From Pseudomonadota bacterium (GTDB lineage Bacteria > Pseudomonadota > Gammaproteobacteria > Steroidobacterales > Steroidobacteraceae): DNA of 46,273 nt. The DNA lies in NCBI GenBank assembly GCA_021838635.1, contig JAKCDC010000020.1, positions 1 through 46,273 of the forward strand, written 5' to 3'. The notes under the pieces were generated by a model. The model had not been told where the DNA came from, did no database searches, and was given only the letters and a program-made list of their open reading frames with translations. Both the position numbers and the translations under genes were made by a program. Below, piece after piece: positions 15,738 through 26,937 of the stretch (position 1 is the stretch's first letter; each line of letters opens with the position of its first letter).

Positions 15738-17264
<1,527 letters not shown>

Positions 17265-17311: not shown

Positions 17312-18205
17312 ATGACGCGCCCCGATCTCGATGCGATACGCGCCTTGGATGCTGTGGTGCGCCACGGCGGGTTCGCCCAGGCGGCCGCAGCGCTGCACAG
17401 AGTTCAATCCACGGTGAGCTATCAGGTCGGTAAGCTCGAAGCACAGCTCGGGGTGCCGTTGCTGGATCGGACGCACTACCGTGTCCAATTAACCCCCGCG
17501 GGGGAGGCTTTGCTCGCCGAGGGACGCCGCCTGCTCGGCCAGGCGGATCGCATGGCGTGCATGGCTCAGCAGTTCTCGTCAGGCTGGGAGCCGCGCCTCA
17601 CCGTGATTCTCGACGGGATCCTGTCGCTCGAGGCGACCTTGCGCGCGCTGAAGACATTGGCCGACGAAAAGGTGCCAACGCGGATTCAATTAAAGGTCGA
17701 GTATCTCGGCGGCGTCCAGTTCCGCTTCGAGAAGGACAACGCCGATATCATGCTGGTCAAAGATTATGTGGGTCGTTCGGATCTCGACGCGCATCCACTG
17801 CAGGAAGTGGAATGCATTTTATGCGTTTCGCCGCGCCACCCTCTTGCGAACCGCGCCCGCGTCGCGCTCTCTGAACTTCACGAGCACGTAGAGCTCTCCG
17901 TCCAGGATTCGAGCGACCGGGGCGACGATGAGCATATGTTCGGCGGCGATCGCGTCTTCTATCTCTCCGGATTCATTGCCAAGAAGCAGGCTCTGCGGAT
18001 GGGCTTAGGCTTCGGTTGGATGCCGCGCCATCTCGTCGACCGCGAATTGCACACCGGCGCGCTCACCGAGCTGCACTACGCTGGTGGCTCCAGATATCGA
18101 TTCACGCCCCAACTCGTTCATCGCGTCACTGCACCGCTCGGTCGGACCGGACGGCGGCTGGCGGAGTTGCTCGTCGGCGAATCGACGCCGATTCGCCAGC
18201 GGTGA
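17312..18205 (+). CDS. LysR-family regulator of the tpl/tnaA region
   Basis: Predicted transcription factor of 297 residues. The N-terminal helix-turn-helix is typical: LDAVVRHGGFAQAAAALHRVQSTVSYQVGKLEAQLGVPLLDR. A linker helix follows, then a periplasmic-binding-like co-inducer domain with CILCVSPRHPLA and GLGFGWMPRHLV. It sits between tpl (divergent) and tnaA (same strand, about 215 bases downstream). An aromatic amino acid as co-inducer is an inference from the two enzymes. In Citrobacter and Erwinia tpl is controlled by TyrR, so LysR control would be a different arrangement. The start codon abuts a canonical LysR box. Confidence 0.88.
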   Translation: MTRPDLDAIRALDAVVRHGGFAQAAAALHRVQSTVSYQVGKLEAQLGVPLLDRTHYRVQLTPAGEALLAEGRRLLGQADRMACMAQQFSSGWEPRLTVILDGILSLEATLRALKTLADEKVPTRIQLKVEYLGGVQFRFEKDNADIMLVKDYVGRSDLDAHPLQEVECILCVSPRHPLANRARVALSELHEHVELSVQDSSDRGDDEHMFGGDRVFYLSGFIAKKQALRMGLGFGWMPRHLVDRELHTGALTELHYAGGSRYRFTPQLVHRVTAPLGRTGRRLAELLVGESTPIRQR

Positions 18206-18421
18206 CGCCGCTCCCGGTCCCCAAAGGGCCGGGGCTGCCCGGTGGGCGCGTCCGTTTCCTGCCCGCAGTGATCGCCGACGCCACTCGCGCAAACAGTTTC
18301 CCCTCCGATCAAGAAGATACAGGCGGTTGTTCTTTCGCGGGCCGATTGCAGGGACCATTCAGGAACAATGTTCTTGAGCGACTGCTTAAGATCTCGGAAC
18401 ACGAGGCAAGGCCATACCGCT

Positions 18422-19786
18422 ATGAAAACCATCATCGAGCCGTTTCGCATCAAGGCAATCGAGCCGATCCGGCTCACCACGCCCGCGGAGCGGCGCGAGG
18501 TGCTCAAGAGCGCCCACTGGAACCTCTTCGCGGTGCGTTCGGAGGACGTCACCATCGACCTGCTCACCGATTCGGGCACGAGCGCCATGAGCGCGCGGCA
18601 GTGGGCGGCCCTGATGGCGGGCGACGAATCCTACGCCGGCTCACCGTCATTCTACCGGTTCGAAGCGGCAGTGAAGGCACTCATGCCGTTCCGACACGTT
18701 ATCCCGACGCATCAGGGCCGCGCTGCAGAGGCGATCCTCTTCGCCCTGATCGGCGGCGCAGGACGGGTGATTCCCTCCAATGCGCATTTCGATACGACGC
18801 GGGCAAACATCGAAGCGAGCGGAGCCGAGGCGCGTGATCTGCTCATCGAGGAAGGACGTGATCCAGCCTCGCGCCATCCGTTCAAGGGCAACATGGATAC
18901 CGCGCGGCTCGAGAGACTTCTGGAGGAGCGCCACGCCGAGGTTCCCGCCGTGATGCTGACGGTGACGAACAACACCGGAGGCGGCCAGCCGGTGAGCCTC
19001 GAGAACATCCGCGCCACGGCGGCAATTGCCAATCGCTACGGCAAGCCGCTGTTCATCGACGGTTGCCGATTCGCAGAAAACGCCTACTTCATCAAACTTC
19101 GGGAGCCTGGCCAGCAGTCCCGCGCCGTACCGGACATCGTGCGCGACATGTTTTCGGCTGCCGACGGCATGATCATGAGTGCCAAAAAGGACGCGCTTGC
19201 CAATATTGGGGGCTGGCTGGCGGTGAACGACGACACACTGGCCCAAGGTGCGCGCGAGCGACTCATTCTTACTGAGGGATTTCCGACCTACGGGGGACTG
19301 GCGGGCCGAGACCTCGAAGCGATCGCCCAGGGACTCGCCGAGGTCATCGACGAGGATTATCTTCGCTACCGCCTGCGGACCTGCGAATACGTGGTCGAGC
19401 GCTTGCGCGCGCTCGGTGTACCGACCGTGGAGCCGAGTGGCGGGCATGCGGTATTCATCGACGCGCGTGCCTTCCTCGACCACATTCCGCCCCTGCAATA
19501 TCCCGGGCAGGCGCTGGTGGCGGCGCTGTATGAGCAGGGTGGCGTTCGCAGTTGTGAGATCGGCACGGTGATGTTCGGCCGGCAGAGCGACGGCAGCGAA
19601 CGGCCCGCCATGATGGATCTGGTGCGCCTCGCGATGCCGCGGCGAGTATACACGCAAGCCCATGCCGACTATCTGATCGAGGTCATCGGCGAGATCGCGG
19701 CACGGCGGGGTGATCTGCGCGGGCTGCGCATCGTCGAGCAACCGCAACGGTTGCGGCACTTTACCGCGCAGTTCGCGCCGTTATGA
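18422..19786 (+). CDS. tnaA: Tryptophanase (tryptophan indole-lyase)
   Basis: PLP enzyme that cleaves L-tryptophan to indole, pyruvate and ammonia. The 454-residue protein shows LLTDSGTSAMS, IPTHQGRAAE, the PLP-lysine Lys256 in SAKKD, and PRRVYTQAH. At the positions that separate the two enzymes it has the tryptophanase forms: CEIG (Ile380) where TPL has MERG, and His446 in LRHF where TPL has Phe. The family-typical Gly in THQGRGAE is Ala here. The ATG at 18422 follows GAGGCAAGG; the frame is open to 18368 but that extension is unlikely. I see no TnaC-like leader with a critical Trp upstream. A strong hairpin follows the stop at 19809-19838. It could act on a related beta-eliminated amino acid. 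Confidence 0.85.
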   Translation: MKTIIEPFRIKAIEPIRLTTPAERREVLKSAHWNLFAVRSEDVTIDLLTDSGTSAMSARQWAALMAGDESYAGSPSFYRFEAAVKALMPFRHVIPTHQGRAAEAILFALIGGAGRVIPSNAHFDTTRANIEASGAEARDLLIEEGRDPASRHPFKGNMDTARLERLLEERHAEVPAVMLTVTNNTGGGQPVSLENIRATAAIANRYGKPLFIDGCRFAENAYFIKLREPGQQSRAVPDIVRDMFSAADGMIMSAKKDALANIGGWLAVNDDTLAQGARERLILTEGFPTYGGLAGRDLEAIAQGLAEVIDEDYLRYRLRTCEYVVERLRALGVPTVEPSGGHAVFIDARAFLDHIPPLQYPGQALVAALYEQGGVRSCEIGTVMFGRQSDGSERPAMMDLVRLAMPRRVYTQAHADYLIEVIGEIAARRGDLRGLRIVEQPQRLRHFTAQFAPL

Positions 19787-20804: not shown

Positions 20805-22163
20805 ATGTCTCGGCGCGTCGTCGTACTGCAGGGTGCCGGATCCGCACTGGAACTGGACAACCTGATCGTTGCCCAGAATTGGGAGATCCGCCGTGCGACT
20901 CGACTCGACGAAGTACATGTTTCCGACGGCGCGTCGGATTGCTCCGTCGGCATTGCGGTATTCGACGCAGCGCTCCTCTGTAGCCCGGGGGATTTCATGC
21001 AAGCGGATGCGCCCAGCGACATGGAGTGGCTGGCGGTCATTCCCAAAGACGCGCCGCGAGACCCGCGCACGGCGCGCGCGCTCGCCTCCGTATTCTTCGA
21101 CTTCCACACGCTGCCGCTCGACGGTGCGCGCCTTTTGCACTCGCTCGGACATGCGTACGGAAAGTCTCTGCTGCGCCGCGCCGCGTTCGCCCCCCCCGTC
21201 CGCAGCCGTGGCCAGTACGGCATGATCGGAGACAGTCCCGGCATGCAGACTCTGTACCGCCAGCTCGAGCGAGTGATGCGCGCGAGCGCGCCTTTGCTGC
21301 TGACCGGTGAGAGCGGCGTCGGCAAAGAGCTCGCCGCCCGAGCAGTGCACGTCGGTTCGGAACGAAACGCCGGTCCGTTCGTGCCGGTGAATTGTGGTGC
21401 GCTACCCCCGGCGCTCATCGAAAGCCTGCTATTCGGCCACGAGCGAGGCTCCTTCACCGGCGCACATGAGCGTCAGATTGGATCGATTGAAGCGGCCGCT
21501 CATGGAACGATCTTTCTCGATGAAATTGGCGATCTACCGCGTCCGGCGCAGGCGAGTCTGTTGCGCTTTCTGCAGGAGTCGACCGTTACGCGCGTCGGCT
21601 CGACGCGCGAACTGCGGATCGACGCCCGGGTCATTGCCGCGACCCACAAAGACTTAAGCACCGCGGTGCGCGCCGGGGAGTTCCGCGAAGATCTCTTCTA
21701 TAGGCTGAACGTCCTGCACATCGAAATTCCGCCGCTACGGGCGCGGGGCGCGGACTGCGTTCTGCTCGCCGAGCACTTTCTGCATCGGGAAATCATTGGC
21801 TGCCCATCCGGTGTGCGCGGCTTTTCGGAAAGTGCGCTCACTGCGATCCAGCGTCACAGCTGGCCCGGGAACATCCGCGAGCTTCTTAACAAAGTCCAGC
21901 ATGCCGTGGTGATGTGCAACGGTCCACTGATCACCCCGACCGACTTGCAACTCGAACGCCGCGGCGCCTTCTGCGTGAGCGGTTCTCTGGCCGATGCACG
22001 TGCAGGAACCGAGCGACAACTGATTGAAATCGCGCTCGATCGTAGCGGGCACAACATCGCCGCCACCGCGCGCGAGCTCGGAGTGTCCAGAGTCACGCTC
22101 TATCGGATCCTCAAGCGCCTCGGAATGTCCCCGCGAGGAGGATTCAGCGCGCTCGACTCCTGA
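20805..22163 (+). CDS. Sigma-54-type enhancer-binding regulator (VpsR-like)
   Basis: Predicted transcription activator of 452 residues. The N-terminal ~135 residues form a receiver-like domain resembling VpsR. The AAA+ domain has Walker A GESGVGKE (168-175), the sigma-54-contact loop GSFTGA (215-220, Ser in place of the usual Ala), Walker B IFLDEI (236-241) and REDLFYRL (294-301). A Fis-type helix-turn-helix lies at about 405-445 (NIAATARELGVSRVTLYRILKRLG). It is followed after 33 bases by the FapF-like gene. A perfect sigma-54 promoter lies upstream of the facing operon at 26810-26825, making that operon the likely target. VpsR itself responds to cyclic di-GMP and can work with sigma-70, so the mechanism here is open. 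The ribosome-binding site is weak. Confidence 0.87.
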   Translation: MSRRVVVLQGAGSALELDNLIVAQNWEIRRATRLDEVHVSDGASDCSVGIAVFDAALLCSPGDFMQADAPSDMEWLAVIPKDAPRDPRTARALASVFFDFHTLPLDGARLLHSLGHAYGKSLLRRAAFAPPVRSRGQYGMIGDSPGMQTLYRQLERVMRASAPLLLTGESGVGKELAARAVHVGSERNAGPFVPVNCGALPPALIESLLFGHERGSFTGAHERQIGSIEAAAHGTIFLDEIGDLPRPAQASLLRFLQESTVTRVGSTRELRIDARVIAATHKDLSTAVRAGEFREDLFYRLNVLHIEIPPLRARGADCVLLAEHFLHREIIGCPSGVRGFSESALTAIQRHSWPGNIRELLNKVQHAVVMCNGPLITPTDLQLERRGAFCVSGSLADARAGTERQLIEIALDRSGHNIAATARELGVSRVTLYRILKRLGMSPRGGFSALDS

Positions 22164-22196
22164 GTGATCAGTCGCCATGCCATGGGAGCAAGAACA

Positions 22197-23246
22197 ATGC
22201 ACCGCTGCCATACTCTCGCCGCAAGCGCACTGCTCGCGGCCGCGCTGTCCCCCAATGCCCAGACACTCGCGGCCGATTCGCCGCCGAGCGCTCCGCCCAC
22301 CCCGGTCGGTCAAGCGCCCGCGGCGCCGAAGGCCCCCGCCCCGGCCGCACAAGTTTTCGCCGAACCTACCGCATTGACTCCACAGGGAACTCTGGTTCTG
22401 GAACCGTCCATTCAGTATATCCACTCGACCAACAACCAAATCGCGTTGCTCGGATATACGGTGCTGCCGGCGCTGACCATAGGACTCATCGACGTTCAGC
22501 GCATCGAGAGCAATTTGACGACCTACAACCTCACTGCACGCTACGGTTTGCTGAGGCGCCTGGAAATCGAGATGCGAGTGCCGTACGTGATCGAAAACAC
22601 CACCACCGAGATGCGCCCATTGGCCACTGCAGCTACGACGAATTCGTATTTCAACGCCTCCGGCAGCGACATCGGTGACGCGGAAGTGGCGCTACGTGCG
22701 CAGCTGAACGAGTTTCATGGCGATAACGTGGTATGGATCGGCTCCCTGCTGTTTAAGTCCCATACCGGCACCAGTATTTTTCAGGAGCCGGTCGATCCGA
22801 ACACAGGTCTGCAGAGTACGCTCGCCACCGGATCCGGATTCAACGCGATTCAGCCTGGGATCACGTTCCTCATGCCGTCCGACCCTGCCGTGTTTTTTGG
22901 CGGTGCCGATTACACTTATAGTATCGGCCGGGACGTAGGCCACGGATACGGATACATCCATCCCGGCGCGATCATCGACGTGACCCTCGGTATGGGACTT
23001 GCGCTCAATGCACGCGCTTCCTTCAGTATCGGTTACCAGCACAGCATCGTGTTCCAGACCACGCAGACCTCTCCGGCCAGCGGCCTGGCGCTCGCCCGCG
23101 TGGGCACATTGCAGCTCGGCACGCTGCGCTTTGGCGTGACCTACCGTATCAACGCACGCACCCTGCTGAACGTCACGATTGGCGTCGGGGTCACACGCGA
23201 TTCTCCCGATCTCGAGGCGACGGCCCGGCTGCCCGTCTCCTTCTGA
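22197..23246 (+). CDS. fapF: FapF-like outer-membrane amyloid exporter
   Basis: Predicted outer-membrane beta-barrel of 349 residues. In Pseudomonas, FapF exports functional amyloid subunits. A Sec signal peptide ending about residue 25 is followed by a Pro/Ala-rich linker (to about 55), then the conserved entry LTPQGTLVLEPSIQYIHSTNN, LLGYTVLPALTIGLIDV, LTARYGLLRRLEIEMRVPYV, and amphipathic strands to a C-terminal Phe (ARLPVSF) as expected for barrel assembly. The Pseudomonas protein carries an N-terminal coiled coil; here only the Pro/Ala linker is seen. GGGAG lies 8 bases before the ATG. Same transcript as the regulator; it converges with the minus-strand operon with only 16 bases between the stops. 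Confidence 0.78.
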   Translation: MHRCHTLAASALLAAALSPNAQTLAADSPPSAPPTPVGQAPAAPKAPAPAAQVFAEPTALTPQGTLVLEPSIQYIHSTNNQIALLGYTVLPALTIGLIDVQRIESNLTTYNLTARYGLLRRLEIEMRVPYVIENTTTEMRPLATAATTNSYFNASGSDIGDAEVALRAQLNEFHGDNVVWIGSLLFKSHTGTSIFQEPVDPNTGLQSTLATGSGFNAIQPGITFLMPSDPAVFFGGADYTYSIGRDVGHGYGYIHPGAIIDVTLGMGLALNARASFSIGYQHSIVFQTTQTSPASGLALARVGTLQLGTLRFGVTYRINARTLLNVTIGVGVTRDSPDLEATARLPVSF

Positions 23247-23262
23247 TCGGTTCCGCAACGAC

Positions 23263-24282
23263 TCAATGGCTGATGGAGGCGGCCACCTGCGCCTGAATCG
23301 CGGCCGCCAACGACAGCGCATTGGCCACTGGCAGACCGCCCAACGTCGCGGTGATGGTCGTCTGAGTCTGGATGGTGGTCGCCTGCACGTCGTTCTGCAC
23401 CGCCGTCGTGATCGCCGCGGCGTTCGGGAGGTTGCTGATCACGATGACCGGCACCACGCCGCCCCCAGCGGGCGCACTCATCACCTGCGGCGATGCTGCC
23501 GCGATGGGCGCAGCGGTGGCCGGTGCCGACGGAGCCGCCGGGATCGCAGCGACCAAGGGGCTGGACTGAACTGAGGGGTCCACCTGCGTCGCCACCGGTG
23601 TGCTCGTGGCGACCACTGGCTGCACGTTCGGCGCCGAGACCGATGGCGTCGGAGCCGAGGGAGCCGGCGCGCTGGCGGCGCCGGACAATGCGCCATTGGC
23701 CACCGCGACGGCATTCGTGAGTGCACTGGCGAATTGTGAGGTCGACCCACTCTGCACATCAGGAGAACTCACCGACCCGCTGGTCTCTCCTGGGGCACTC
23801 GAGGTGACCGCGGGCGCAGTCGCCACGGCAGGAGCGCTGATCGGCGCGGTCTGAACTGCAAGCGGGGTGGCCGACCCGGTAGCCGCCGGGGTGGCGACGG
23901 GCGTGGACATCAGGAGTCCCGCCGCGCCGCCCGCAGACACGCCCTGTCCCGAATCGAGCACCTGGATCAACTGGGCGAGCGGACCGGTAACGGAGATCTG
24001 CGGCAGGCCACCGGAGGCCAGATTGCCGAGATTGGAGATCACCAGCTGCATTTGCGCCACAACCTGGCCGTTCACTTCCACGGTGCGCGCGATGGCGAAG
24101 TACGCGACGAGGTTGTTTTGAGGGAAATCGAAGCCGCCATGCAACCTCGCCAGCTCGGCATCCGGCACCACCACCCAGGACGCTGCGGTCCGTTCTGCCG
24201 CTAGAATGTTCCCCGACGAGGCGACTGCGGCCGCACTGGAGCCGATGCACAGTCCCATGATCAACGGTTTGAGCATGCGCAT
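23263..24282 (-). CDS. Secreted protein with double-glycine-like motif, FapE-position gene
   Basis: Unrecognised secreted protein of 339 residues, last gene of the Fap-like operon. A Sec signal peptide (LIMGLCIGSSAAAVASS) is followed by PDAELARLHGG at residues 40-50, which looks like the ELxxLxGG processing site of C39-peptidase substrates, then FDFPQNNLVAYFAIARTVEVNG. The middle (about 110-280) is low-complexity Ala/Pro/Ser/Thr/Val. The C-terminus is Thr/Gln/Ala-rich (VQNDVQATTIQTQTTITATL). The start at 24282 follows GGAGG by 5 bases; another ATG is two codons later. It begins 16 bases after the C39 peptidase stop. Its place and secretion suggest a FapE-like minor subunit, but sequence homology is not certain. 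Confidence 0.7.
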   Translation of the reverse strand: MRMLKPLIMGLCIGSSAAAVASSGNILAAERTAASWVVVPDAELARLHGGFDFPQNNLVAYFAIARTVEVNGQVVAQMQLVISNLGNLASGGLPQISVTGPLAQLIQVLDSGQGVSAGGAAGLLMSTPVATPAATGSATPLAVQTAPISAPAVATAPAVTSSAPGETSGSVSSPDVQSGSTSQFASALTNAVAVANGALSGAASAPAPSAPTPSVSAPNVQPVVATSTPVATQVDPSVQSSPLVAAIPAAPSAPATAAPIAAASPQVMSAPAGGGVVPVIVISNLPNAAAITTAVQNDVQATTIQTQTTITATLGGLPVANALSLAAAIQAQVAASISH

Positions 24283-24298
24283 ACGGGCCTCCACTCGC

Positions 24299-25000
24299 TC
24301 AGAAGCGATTCCCGTTCGGAATTTCGAGCAACTCAAGGGCCAGGGAATGCCGATCCACGCCAACGAACAGCGGCGGCGGCGTTGCCGAGTTCCAGTCCGC
24401 CGGCAGGTTGAACCGGGCAATATTCAAATCGTTACGAATCACGAAGAACAGATTTCCCACACGCGCACGCGCAAACGCCTTGCGGGACATCACCCGGCGA
24501 CCGAGCGCTGGATCACCGAGCACCACTCGGTACGCATTGGCACCCTTGACGACCACGAAGTGGCGATACCCATGATCGGTAATCAGGGCGATCGCCGGGA
24601 TGCCAATCTTGATCAGCGTGCTCAGTGGAACGCGCACGCCGTCGGCAACGTAGCCCAAGCTCTGCAGATAGCGCTTCATATCGAGCAAAGAGAAGCCCTC
24701 GACGCGGATCTGTGCCTGGTTGCCTACCGCGTACATCGCTCTGAACACGGCCGTCTCGGTAGTCGGCCGTCCGTACTGGTAGGTCAGCAGCGTCGCCAAC
24801 GCCGCCGAGCCGCAACTGAAGTCGTACTGCTGATGCACCGTACGGCGAAATCCCCAGTAAAAGCGCATCTGCTGCAGCGTGTGCACCGGCACCGCATACG
24901 ACTCCCCGCCGCTCAGCTGCACCACGCCCTCGGCGAGCACGGCTCGGGCGGCCAGCAGCCCGAGCGCCATCGCGAGCATCGCCCCCAGGACTCTATTCAC
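24299..25000 (-). CDS. fapD: C39-family cysteine peptidase, FapD-like
   Basis: Predicted periplasmic papain-like peptidase of 233 residues. A signal peptide (MLAMALGLLAARAVLA) precedes the C39 domain. The catalytic Cys63 is in QQYDFSCGSAALATLL, with His147 in YRHFVVVKG and Asp163 in LGDPALGR. In bacteriocin ABC exporters C39 domains cut after Gly-Gly; the stand-alone FapD peptidase is part of Pseudomonas fap operons. Here the neighbouring downstream gene encodes a protein with a double-glycine-like motif, a candidate substrate. GTG start at 25000 with GAGG 7 bases upstream. It is separated by 10 bases from the preceding gene and by 16 from the next. Confidence 0.85.
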   Translation of the reverse strand: MNRVLGAMLAMALGLLAARAVLAEGVVQLSGGESYAVPVHTLQQMRFYWGFRRTVHQQYDFSCGSAALATLLTYQYGRPTTETAVFRAMYAVGNQAQIRVEGFSLLDMKRYLQSLGYVADGVRVPLSTLIKIGIPAIALITDHGYRHFVVVKGANAYRVVLGDPALGRRVMSRKAFARARVGNLFFVIRNDLNIARFNLPADWNSATPPPLFVGVDRHSLALELLEIPNGNRF

Positions 25001-25010
25001 GGCGACGCCT

Positions 25011-25502
25011 CTATTTCTGACCAGTCAATTGCAGGTTCAGAATCGTCGAATTTTGAATCAGCACGTTGTTGCCGGTGTTCTGGATCACGATCGGTATCCC
25101 CGAGGCATTCGAAAACGCGCTGCTACTGATCGAATTCGAGCCGGTGGTCAGCTGCGAGGCGACGTTTCCGCTCACCGCCCCATTGGAGTTGTTCTGGCTC
25201 AAATGGGTATCTGTGCCACCGCGCTCCTTGGCGAGAACCGCATCCCCGAGCACCGCGGCGCTGAGCAGCGCAATCGACCTTATCGAGCGCCGGGCAGCCG
25301 CAGCGTGCGCTCTTGATTTCGGCGGCTGCGCCGCCGCAGTCCGGTGCGCCGGAGCGCTGTGCTCGGCAGCGAATTGGATGATCGGGTGGCGCTGGACCTT
25401 TGTAGCCGGTGGAGGCGCTTGGGGCGTCTCACCCCGCGCCGCAACAGCCCCGAGCGCACCCAGGGCCGCCAGCATGATGATCGGTACTATGGGGCGATTC
25501 AT
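25011..25502 (-). CDS. fapA: FapA-like small secreted protein
   Basis: Predicted secreted protein of 163 residues, second gene of the operon. Signal peptide at residues 1-23 (PIVPIIMLAALGALGAVAA), then a Pro/Ala/Arg-rich basic stretch, and a C-terminal ~60-residue module rich in Asn/Ser (NNSNGAVSGNVAS, SNSISSSAFSNASGI, VIQNTGNNVLIQNSTILNLQL). In Pseudomonas FapA is proposed to chaperone the amyloid subunits. The C-terminal module is shared with the glycine-rich protein encoded just upstream. The ATG at 25502 follows GGAGG by 5 bases. The gene name is given by operon position and motif style and could be wrong; FapB-like is the main alternative. Confidence 0.6.
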   Translation of the reverse strand: MNRPIVPIIMLAALGALGAVAARGETPQAPPPATKVQRHPIIQFAAEHSAPAHRTAAAQPPKSRAHAAAARRSIRSIALLSAAVLGDAVLAKERGGTDTHLSQNNSNGAVSGNVASQLTTGSNSISSSAFSNASGIPIVIQNTGNNVLIQNSTILNLQLTGQK

Positions 25503-25570
25503 GGCAACCTCCGCAATGAGCGTCCGGAGCGTCGCGCCCACGGCGCGACGCTCCGAAGCGCTCCCCGGTG

Positions 25571-26713
25571 CTAATGACCGGTCGCTGAAAGCGACAGGTT
25601 GGCCTGTACGTTGACGCTCTGCTGGATCAGCGACGACATGCCGCTGTTCTGGCTCGCCACCGTGATGCCGGCCCCATTCGTGAAGGCGCTGCTGATGTTG
25701 TTGGACATATCGAACGTCCCGGCGGTGACGGTATTGTTCCCGCCCATGCCGCCTGCACCGCCGGCTCCGCCCACCGCACCATTGCCGACGCCACCGGTTC
25801 CGGTCGTCGTCGCCTGCGTGCCTCCGGTTCCGGAGCCGCCGCTGCCGCCGCTGCCGCCGCCGCCGCCGCTACCCGCATTACCGAGCGATGCCGTTGCACT
25901 GCCGTTCGCAGCATAGCCATTGGTGGCCGAACCGCTTGAGCCGCCCGATCCGCCCGTGTTGGTGCTGGCGACGGTGTTCGCCGCGCCACCACCAGTGCCA
26001 TTTCCAGACGTTGCCGCTCCACCGCTGCCGCTCGTCGAGGAGTGATTCGACTTCGTGCTCGAGCCACTGTTTACCGCGGCACTCAGTCCGCCGTAGGCCT
26101 CTCCGCCCGACCCCATCCCGCCGCCACCAGCGCCGGTCCGGGTGAAGCCTACGTCGCCGCCGCTTCCTCCGGAACTGGCATCCGCGCTGCCGTTGCGAGC
26201 GCTTCCGTTAGTCGTGTTGCCGGCGGTCACTGAACCGCCCGATGCCCCAACGGCGCCCCGCGCTCCGTTTCCGCCGGATGTCGTCATGCTCGCCGACGAG
26301 TCGCCGCTCGCTCCGCCGTATCCGGCGCCGCCCTTACCGCCCGCCGCGCCGCTGGCTCCGTTGGCGTTGCCCATATTCCACGCCGTATTTCCAATGCCAG
26401 CAACCGTGTTTCCGGACACCGTCGCGTTCAGGTTCGACGTCGCCGCGACCGTCGTATTCCAAGTGTCGTTGGTGACTGTCTTGGTCACGGTCATGGTCGA
26501 TGTCGTGTTCGTCGTCGGGTCATAGCTGCTGAGATTTGCCGACGAACCGAGGTTCGCTTGCGGGCTACCGTTGCCGCCCTGCGTGGCTGTACTGGTCTTC
26601 GTGACAGACGAGGATGGAGGATTCGCTCCTCCTCCGGGGGTCGCCATCGCCAGCCCGGAGGCCGACGCCAGCGCCATGGCGATTGCCATGGCAATCAGTT
26701 TATTCGTCTTCAT
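25571..26713 (-). CDS. Glycine-rich secreted protein, candidate amyloid subunit (FapB/C-like)
   Basis: First gene of the Fap-like operon, 380 residues. A clear signal peptide (LIAMAIAMALASASGLAMA) is followed by a Thr/Ser/Asn-rich segment, then about 240 residues dominated by Gly, Ser, Ala, Asn and Thr (runs such as SGGGGGSGGSGGSGTGG). A conserved-looking C-terminus follows: SNNISSAFTNGAGI, ASQNSGMSSLIQQSVNVQANL. The mature protein has no Cys, so the CxxC of Pseudomonas FapC is absent, and I see no clear long repeats like those of FapC. It is the best candidate for the exported fibre or matrix protein. GGAGA precedes the ATG at 26713. A sigma-54 promoter lies about 100 bases upstream. Confidence 0.72.
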   Translation of the reverse strand: MKTNKLIAMAIAMALASASGLAMATPGGGANPPSSSVTKTSTATQGGNGSPQANLGSSANLSSYDPTTNTTSTMTVTKTVTNDTWNTTVAATSNLNATVSGNTVAGIGNTAWNMGNANGASGAAGGKGGAGYGGASGDSSASMTTSGGNGARGAVGASGGSVTAGNTTNGSARNGSADASSGGSGGDVGFTRTGAGGGGMGSGGEAYGGLSAAVNSGSSTKSNHSSTSGSGGAATSGNGTGGGAANTVASTNTGGSGGSSGSATNGYAANGSATASLGNAGSGGGGGSGGSGGSGTGGTQATTTGTGGVGNGAVGGAGGAGGMGGNNTVTAGTFDMSNNISSAFTNGAGITVASQNSGMSSLIQQSVNVQANLSLSATGH

Positions 26714-26809
26714 TGAGGATTCTCCGCACATGGATGGTTTGACTTCGCGATGCATTGCGCCGCCGCTCACCACTGCACACAGTCGGTTCCTGGCCGCAGC
26801 GCTCTTCAA

Positions 26810-26825
26810 GCAACCCTCGTGCCAC
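26810..26825 (-). promoter_or_regulatory. Sigma-54 promoter of the Fap-like operon
   Basis: On the minus strand the sequence is TGGCACGAGGGTTGCT: TGGCAC (26825-26820), 5 bases, TTGCT (26814-26810). This matches the -24/-12 consensus TGGCACG-N4-TTGCW at every conserved position. Transcription would start near 26799 and give a leader of about 85 bases before the glycine-rich gene. Confidence 0.8.
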
Positions 26826-26917
26826 GCGGCGACCTGCTGCCAAGTGACTGATTGGAAACACTTGTGCGCCGTTCGGCATGGCGCGTCCGCCGCTGCAGCG
26901 GCGAAACATGTGTCCGG

Positions 26918-26937
26918 TACGAGTCACCTCTCGTACG
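26918..26937. promoter_or_regulatory. Candidate upstream activator site (20-bp dyad)
   Basis: A perfect 7-bp inverted repeat, GTACGAG and CTCGTAC, with a 6-base centre. It lies 93 bases upstream of the -24 element, in the range where sigma-54 enhancer-binding proteins bind. The likely binder is the regulator encoded at 20805-22163 (inference). Confidence 0.55.

What the first reader, a model, noticed from the sequence alone, without database searches (positions are those of the whole stretch)
20805..26937. Variant Fap-like functional-amyloid locus in a split, convergent layout
Seen: a FapF-like barrel and an enhancer-binding regulator on the plus strand converge on a minus-strand operon of a glycine-rich secreted protein, a FapA-like protein, a C39 peptidase and another secreted protein. 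All four operon products have Sec signal peptides. Known: Pseudomonas fapA-F is one collinear operon with FapD (C39) and FapF (export pore). Here the pore is on the opposite strand with a dedicated regulator, the main subunit candidate has no CxxC and no clear FapC repeats, and the order differs. Inference: a distinct branch of Fap-type secretion with its own fibre or matrix protein.
Basis: partly seen in the sequence, partly recalled or inferred. Interest (0 to 1): 0.85.

Follow-up and report, generated by a model that had tools for sequence, protein, structure and literature searches.

The report
Divergent Fap-type fibre secretion locus
This is a real but very divergent relative of the Pseudomonas system that exports biofilm amyloid fibres, and it is informative because two of its exported proteins carry clear cut-here signals for the system's protease, whose target in Pseudomonas has not been established.

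Summary
The six genes are there and belong together. The barrel is FapF-like by sequence (NCBIfam FapF 2.5e-30, PDB FapF 2.7e-19) and predicted fold (best PDB match FapF 1.8e-19); the peptidase is FapD-like. They form a separate branch: FapF scores leave a gap between 171 and 307 bits, and a peptidase tree splits the two kinds, support 100. In 84 related loci with peptidase and barrel, the order glycine-rich / short secreted / peptidase / FapE-like is kept, with the barrel collinear, convergent or divergent, so the split layout is not the novelty. The short protein is not FapA-like: it and the glycine-rich protein share a C-terminal Fap-repeat-like motif. The gene after the peptidase is a FapE homologue. 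Main find: the FapE-like protein (87 of 87) and the short protein (71 of 83) carry C39 double-glycine leaders behind Sec signals; classic FapE reads RG[RK][YF] there (17 of 17 assessable). This points to the peptidase's targets. The window's barrel lacks the FapF coiled coil. A sigma-54 promoter precedes the operon. Cleavage, export and amyloid are inferred, not shown.

The parts
20805..22163 (+). Sigma-54 enhancer-binding regulator, 452 aa: VpsR-like N-terminal domain, AAA+ sigma-54 activation domain, Fis-type HTH; GSFTGA loop (motif recalled)
   Evidence: Pfam VpsR 4.5e-7, Sigma54_activat 2.3e-65, HTH_8 3.7e-11; rpoN is present in the same genome
22197..23246 (+). FapF-like outer-membrane barrel, 349 aa, without an N-terminal coiled coil (by eye, about 33-residue Pro/Ala-rich linker); E56, L60, E69, R115, R344 lie opposite FapF E98, F102, E111, R157, K401 (my numbering)
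   Evidence: NCBIfam FapF 2.5e-30 (105.6 bits, cut-off 700) and FilC 2.8e-7; PDB 5o67 2.7e-19; AF2 model pLDDT 80.6, best PDB hit FapF 1.8e-19
23263..24282 (-). FapE-like secreted protein (P0003 plus its start Met); low-complexity insert, conserved ends
   Evidence: Family of 94 ORFs; profile match to classic FapE 2.2e-6 over leader and first strand; one copy found in the genome
24133..24282 (-). Leader of the FapE-like protein: Sec signal plus double-glycine leader VPDAELARLHGG, predicted cut before F
   Evidence: [RH]GG in 87 of 87 non-redundant family members; 45 of 45 members found by phmmer, not chosen by motif
24299..25000 (-). FapD-like C39 cysteine peptidase with Sec signal; Q57, C63, H147, D163 conserved
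   Evidence: NCBIfam FapD 2.2e-37, Pfam Peptidase_C39 5.6e-18; residues kept in at least 97% of rows in each of the two groups, 72 rows
25011..25502 (-). Short secreted protein in the FapB position
   Evidence: Family in 83 of 84 type II loci
25215..25502 (-). Leader of the short protein: Sec signal plus GDAVLAKERGG; predicted mature peptide of 67 aa
   Evidence: [LM]xxx[RHK]GG in 71 of 83 family members, 63-70 aa from the C-terminus, median 64
25014..25130 (-). C-terminal Fap-repeat-like motif of the short protein (ISSSAFSNASGIPIVIQNTGNNVLIQNST)
   Evidence: Profile match to 68 classic FapB/FapC repeats, E 1.2e-4, 0 of 40 column shuffles as good
25571..26713 (-). Glycine-rich secreted protein, candidate main fibre or matrix subunit (FapC position): 26% G, 16% S, 14% T, 14% A, 0 C
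   Evidence: Composition; family in 72 of 84 type II loci
25574..25693 (-). C-terminal motif of the glycine-rich protein, same register as that of the short protein
   Evidence: Profile match short vs glycine-rich family 6.7e-7; direct match to classic repeats weak (E 0.015, 2 of 40 shuffles as good)
26809..26824 (-). Sigma-54 promoter TGGCAC-N5-TTGCT, 95 nt before the start of the glycine-rich gene
   Evidence: Exact match; strict site in a 500-nt window around the 5' end of the first gene in 17 of 37 loci with the regulator, 1 of 21 without; background 0.7% of random 500-nt windows

Best explanation
A divergent branch of the Fap functional-amyloid secretion family (here 'type II Fap'). The VpsR-type regulator, with sigma-54, switches on the minus-strand operon from its -24/-12 promoter. 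The glycine-rich (FapC-position), short (FapB-position) and FapE-like proteins, and the C39 peptidase, enter the periplasm by Sec. There the peptidase removes a second, double-glycine leader from the short protein (leaving about 67 aa) and from the FapE-like protein. The processed proteins and the glycine-rich protein leave through the FapF-like barrel and assemble at the surface through their shared C-terminal N/Q motif into a fibre or matrix. Shown here by computation: homology of barrel, peptidase and FapE-like protein; conservation of the gene set, leaders, catalytic residues, C-terminal motif and promoter. Inferred: cleavage, export through the barrel, fibre or amyloid formation, activation by this regulator.
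For: Barrel and peptidase families, fold, recurrence of the set, one-branch split from classic Fap in the peptidase tree with SH-aLRT 100, gap in FapF scores, both kinds in one genome G051 (L042 type II, L178 classic), GG leaders in the FapE-like and short proteins against 1 of 75 glycine-rich, 3 of 84 peptidases, 9 of 89 barrels, 0 of 53 regulators and 211 of 13438 other ORFs with the same pattern, catalytic residues kept, FapE homology, repeat homology, sigma-54 sites, rpoN. From papers: FapD is a periplasmic, catalytically needed C39 peptidase with unclear target, and FapE was the only Fap protein with no peptides from its N-terminal part in mass spectrometry (PMC5557850, passages).
Against: No experiment. 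NCBIfam cut-offs for FapF and FapD are not reached. The body of the glycine-rich protein does not look like FapC and its own match to Fap repeats is weak. FapE homology rests on the leader and first strand: with the leader removed no significant match remains (E 0.023). The FapE-like model is weak and has no PDB match at E 0.001. The coiled coil needed by Pseudomonas FapF is absent. 20 of 37 assessable loci with a regulator lack a strict sigma-54 site.
Confidence: 0.75

Rival explanations
1. An ordinary Fap system that has merely drifted and been rearranged: same subunits, same chemistry, nothing new.
For: B/C-D-E-F order; a sigma-54 activator also in 16 of 17 classic loci; fapF separation and fapA loss known in Fap (PMC3792158, parts 1-2 and passages).
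Against: Clean split of peptidases with long stem, gap in FapF scores, coexistence in one genome, one degenerate repeat in place of the three of FapC, and a second double-glycine substrate; no such leader was noticed by eye in classic FapB.
Confidence: 0.15
2. A secreted-peptide (bacteriocin-like or signalling) system: the short double-glycine peptide is the effector, and the glycine-rich protein an accessory.
For: Double-glycine leader and C39 peptidase are hallmarks of class II bacteriocins (recalled); the predicted mature peptide has a nearly constant length of 63-70 aa.
Against: The peptidase is a lone enzyme with a Sec-like signal, not part of an ABC exporter; no ABC transporter was recognised among the translations of the operon (immunity genes were not searched for); the peptide's C-terminus matches the glycine-rich protein and Fap repeats.
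Confidence: 0.06
3. A non-amyloid surface adhesin or pilus system like the putative Fil system of Acinetobacter.
For: Second-best NCBIfam hits are FilB (1.3e-30) and FilC (2.8e-7).
Against: Both score below FapD and FapF; the leader pattern was not found in the plus-strand ORFs of the one A. baumannii Fil region examined; Fap-repeat-like C-terminus of the short protein.
Confidence: 0.04

Closest known systems
Fap system of Pseudomonas (fapABCDEF)
   Same: FapF-like barrel, periplasmic FapD-like C39 peptidase, FapE-like protein directly after the peptidase, two substrates with related repeat-like C-termini before it
   Different: No fapA; one degenerate repeat instead of three; glycine-rich main subunit; canonical GG leader on the FapE-like and short proteins where classic FapE has RG[RK][YF]; no coiled coil on the window's barrel; separate peptidase clade
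Fil putative pilus system of Acinetobacter (FilA-F)
   Same: C39 peptidase (FilB) and FapF-family barrel (FilC)
   Different: Weaker matches than to FapD and FapF; other partner genes; no such leader found in the one region examined
C39 double-glycine processing of bacteriocin precursors
   Same: Catalytic Q/C/H/D residues and an ELxxLxGG-type leader (canonical motif recalled)
   Different: Peptidase and substrates carry Sec-like signals, so processing would be periplasmic, with no ABC exporter recognised in the operon
COG4313 channels (Pput2725, PDB 4rl8)
   Same: Second-nearest fold of the barrel (9.1e-11)
   Different: Uptake channel; C39 peptidases had not been reported in operons with such pores according to PMC6173800 (passage)

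Membership tests
Fap system | FapF-type barrel | tested here: met
   NCBIfam 2.5e-30, PDB 2.7e-19, fold 1.8e-19; below the curated cut-off of 700 bits, which none of 369 class genomes reached
Fap system | Periplasmic C39 peptidase FapD | tested here: met
   NCBIfam 2.2e-37, below the 330-bit cut-off; separate clade
Fap system | FapE | tested here: met
   Same position; leader and first strand align, E 2.2e-6; no significant match without the leader
Fap system | FapB/FapC with three Fap repeats (fewer or more in some genera, PMC3792158) | tested here: not met
   One degenerate repeat-like motif at each C-terminus
Fap system | FapA | tested here: not met
   No FapA match in the short or FapE-like family (E 0.71, 0.85, FapA profile of six loci); fapA is often absent in Fap (PMC3792158)
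Fap system | Coiled coil on FapF | tested here: not met
   Absent in the window's barrel (sequence, by eye) and its nearest relatives L059-L064 and L066 (rough rule); present in many other type II barrels
Fap system | Secreted amyloid fibre | not testable with these tools
   -
C39 double-glycine maturation | Catalytic Q, C, H, D | tested here: met
   Q57, C63, H147, D163
C39 double-glycine maturation | Substrate with GG leader in the same operon | tested here: met
   Two substrates
C39 double-glycine maturation | Cleavage after GG | not testable with these tools
   -
Fil pilus system | Better match to FilB/FilC than to FapD/FapF | tested here: not met

The most novel reading that the evidence does not exclude
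Type II Fap uses a two-leader export route: Sec takes precursors to the periplasm, where a free C39 peptidase cuts a double-glycine leader from two substrates (short FapB-position peptide and FapE-like protein) to license export through a FapF-like pore. The classic Fap peptidase then acts on FapE at the homologous RG[RK] site, and perhaps on small upstream proteins with the same kind of leader. Coil-less barrels would show that the FapF coiled coil is dispensable in part of the family.
Probability: 0.65. Interest if true: 0.78.

Novelty: new variant of a known kind. Interest (0 to 1): 0.68.

Why it matters
The substrate of FapD was left open in the papers seen: PMC5557850 (passages) states that Fap proteins have no canonical C39 site and that the target is unclear, and PMC6173800 (passages) repeats that the substrate is undetermined but hints at FapE. 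The type II branch shows the site in canonical form, on two proteins, and the alignment places the counterpart in classic FapE at RG[RK][YF]. That makes the question testable in a laboratory system. The branch also gives natural FapF-like barrels without the coiled coil that PMC5557850 found necessary (section 7) and that PMC6173795 says all FapF homologues possess (passage). In the one annotated record with the set that I saw, the genes are named only transporter, C39 family peptidase and hypothetical protein. Eight paper searches listed no title on such a system; four of them printed only part of their matches, only open-licence papers are held, and supplements could not be read.

Tried and rejected
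FapA identity of the short protein: rejected. Structure of the FapE-like family (representative from L128, 139 aa): pLDDT 74, pTM 0.53, no PDB match at E 0.001, so no fold claim. Direct profile match of the glycine-rich C-terminus to classic Fap repeats: weak; its link rests on the short protein. Post-leader match of FapE-like to FapE: not significant. FapF and FapD models in 14 control genomes: FapF in 0, FapD-like C39 in 7, none over the cut-off, so C39 alone is no marker. I did not reach a Pseudomonas fap operon; an Aeromonas caviae Fap locus served as a named classic example. The Cupriavidus record had no annotation in the stretch. Phages: two C39 hits only, covering 59% of the query. A viral-contig search with the FapE-like alignment could not run.

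Limits of the counts. The coiled-coil state was judged by a rough rule (21 residues without Pro, at most one Gly, at least 38% D/E/K/R/Q); 8 loci had no anchor and others gave no value, and these were dropped. In that table L049 and L056 are classic loci (same places as L191 and L190) printed as type II; I removed both, giving 28 of 29 collinear. Three type II loci of unknown layout (2 coil-like) are outside the counts. FapE-like leader counts are partly circular because the first seeds were picked by the motif; the 45 of 45 phmmer set was not picked by a motif pattern, but its query contains the motif. The classic FapE pattern asked for RG[RKG][YF], so only the choice among R, K and G there is a free result. 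The peptidase tree used 60 type II rows (a thinned set) and 12 of the 17 classic loci. Loci are related to each other, so the Fisher value (0.001) is not a true probability; with one mismatch allowed the counts are 24 of 37 and 4 of 21. The signal-peptide check is a hydrophobicity rule: 68 of 71 short, 64 of 77 FapE-like. Hits of 78 bits and below were not examined, and G193 (111 bits, L189) showed no FapE-like gene, so not every hit in the low group is shown to be type II.
Full report
What is there. The window is contig C72 of a 3.47-Mb draft genome. Between 20805 and 26824 lie six genes and a promoter. On the plus strand a sigma-54 enhancer-binding regulator with a VpsR-like N-terminal domain is followed after 33 nt by a FapF-like barrel. 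On the minus strand an operon runs towards it: glycine-rich secreted protein, short secreted protein, C39 peptidase, and a second secreted protein. The flanks (beta-eliminating lyases and a LysR regulator on one side, an MFS transporter on the other) look unrelated, by reading of the translations.

The barrel and the peptidase. The barrel's best NCBIfam hit is FapF (2.5e-30), and its only PDB sequence hits at E 0.001 are four FapF sequences (2.7e-19 to 3.3e-18). The predicted structure (pLDDT 80.6) matches FapF chains first (18 chains, best 1.8e-19, TM-score by target 0.78-0.83), then the COG4313 channel (9.1e-11). In the alignment, numbered by the residues named in PMC5557850, the window has E56, L60, E69, R115 and R344 opposite E98, F102, E111, R157 and K401 of FapF; this numbering is my own reading, and K401 is replaced by R. 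L60, E69, R115 and R344 are invariant in 50 type II barrels; E56 is not. The peptidase matches FapD (2.2e-37) before FilB (1.3e-30), and Q57, C63, H147 and D163 are kept in at least 97% of rows of both kinds, 72 rows in all.

A separate branch. The FapF model found 69 of 369 genomes of the class at E 0.001. The 17 best places score 307-456 bits; the next 18 score 104-171 bits, the window among them; weaker hits follow from 78 bits down. Of the 17 classic loci fetched, 13 show FapB/FapC-type proteins by eye (not L050, L058, L173, L181). The loci of the second kind that I examined mostly have the window's gene set; one, L189, showed no FapE-like gene. One genome, G051, holds both kinds (L042 and L178). 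In a tree of 72 peptidases, 60 type II and 12 classic rows are the two sides of one branch, SH-aLRT 100 (quick method, midpoint root). The 80 best of 556 confirmed named barrel relatives are, by record title, mostly Burkholderiales, Rhodocyclales and Xanthomonadales (orders recalled, except Zeimonas) and unclassified MAGs. Among 40 relatives of the window's genome 7 had the barrel, the own genome included, so presence is patchy; many of these genomes are incomplete.

Layout. In 84 non-duplicate type II loci with peptidase and barrel (chosen by barrel similarity), the FapE-like gene is present in 84, the short gene in 83, the glycine-rich gene in 72 and the regulator in 47; all six in 42. One search printed 77 for the FapE-like gene and 37 for all six; its misses L060-L063, L065, L091 and L101 had been removed as sequence duplicates, and one search lists them all, five of them with all six genes. 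Some absences are due to contig ends. The module glycine-rich / short / peptidase / FapE-like keeps its order in the loci listed, while the barrel is collinear, convergent or divergent. The split is therefore not the special feature.

Who is who. The gene after the peptidase has the position of FapE, and its profile matches classic FapE over 45 columns (E 2.2e-6). The match depends on the leader and first strand; beyond it there is no significant match (E 0.023). The short protein does not match FapA (E 0.71). Its last 40 residues match 68 FapB/FapC repeats (E 1.2e-4; 0 of 40 column shuffles as good) and match the glycine-rich C-terminus (E 6.7e-7); the glycine-rich C-terminus alone against the repeats is weak (E 0.015, 2 of 40 shuffles as good).

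Leaders. The FapE-like proteins carry a leader of the type xDxxLxx[ML]RGGF: 86 of 87 non-redundant members fit L..x[RH]GG and the last has M for L. All 45 members found by phmmer alone fit the relaxed pattern. Classic FapE has RG[RK][YF] at the homologous place in 16 of 17 classic loci (the 17th, L181, ends at its contig end before these genes), and an Aeromonas caviae FapE does too, making 17 of 17 assessable; the pattern used would also have accepted RGG there, and none had it. The short proteins carry [LM]xxx[RHK]GG in 71 of 83, in each of the 71 at 63-70 residues from the C-terminus; of the other 12, 11 show by eye a near variant such as RGR, SGG or RAKG at about the same place. Controls with the same pattern: glycine-rich 1 of 75, peptidase 3 of 84, barrel 9 of 89, regulator 0 of 53, other ORFs 211 of 13438. 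The window's own sites are VPDAELARLHGG|F and GDAVLAKERGG|T, giving predicted mature chains of 289 and 67 residues. Some coil-bearing barrels have RG[GA] after the coil, which fits the suggestion in PMC5557850 that FapF may be cut there.

Coiled coil. PMC5557850 (section 7 read) reports that FapF without its N-terminal part inserts but does not support secretion, and PMC6173795 (passage) says that all FapF homologues have coiled coils. The window's barrel has no coil, only a Pro/Ala-rich linker. By a rough rule coil-like segments occur in 21 of 35 convergent, 28 of 29 collinear and 8 of 9 divergent type II barrels that gave a value (after removal of two mislabelled classic loci). Whether coil-less barrels secrete is unknown.

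Regulation. An exact TGGCAC-N5-TTGCT lies 95 nt before the glycine-rich gene (sites with up to one mismatch are expected 1.4 times in a window of this size by chance). Strict sites occur around the 5' end of the first gene in 17 of 37 assessable loci with the regulator and 1 of 21 without, against 0.7% of random 500-nt windows. rpoN is in the genome. A c-di-GMP input through the VpsR-like domain is a guess from recalled knowledge of VpsR.

Literature seen. PMC3792158: parts 1 and 2 of 5 and passages; it notes that FapD and FapF models hit many other proteins, as two larger families, and that fapF may be separate. PMC6173800: section 6 and passages; it notes fapD-fapF pairs in five further phyla, counts only loci with at least four fap homologues, and leaves the FapD substrate open. 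PMC5557850: section 7 and passages. PMC5135000 and PMC6173795: passages. All others: search listings only. I found no description of this branch or its leaders in the searches named under Why it matters.

Verdict. A real, conserved, widespread and, as far as my searches show, uncharacterised branch of Fap-type secretion: a new variant of a known kind. Its main value is that it shows the peptidase's probable recognition site in canonical form.

Noticed in passing
L190 12267-12590, L172 2364-2699, L191 12249-12728, L183 11479-11922, L057 3476-3868: Five classic Fap loci have a small secreted protein (about 104-122 aa) outside the fapA-F set, with a leader like that of FapE (for example DDQLGQVRGLF) and a conserved ILWDE/TLWDE motif; its profile aligns with the type II short protein over the leader (E 1.9e-4). 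Candidate extra Fap component and FapD substrate; no literature search was made for it.
   Followed up: partly
L042 and L178 (genome G051): One genome carries both a type II and a classic Fap locus, about 88 kb apart on the same contig.
   Followed up: partly
L075, L080, L085, L088, L090, L120: Six type II loci show two glycine-rich ORFs in the listing.
   Followed up: no
L193 (Vibrio sp. plasmid) and L194 (Croceicoccus marinus plasmid): Plasmid-borne relatives in Vibrio and in an Alphaproteobacterium, both with the RGG leader on the FapE-like protein.
   Followed up: partly
window 15738-17144 (-) and 18368-19786 (+): Two tryptophanase / tyrosine phenol-lyase-like genes lie on either side of a LysR-type regulator (17312-18205); identified by reading the translations only.
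   Followed up: no
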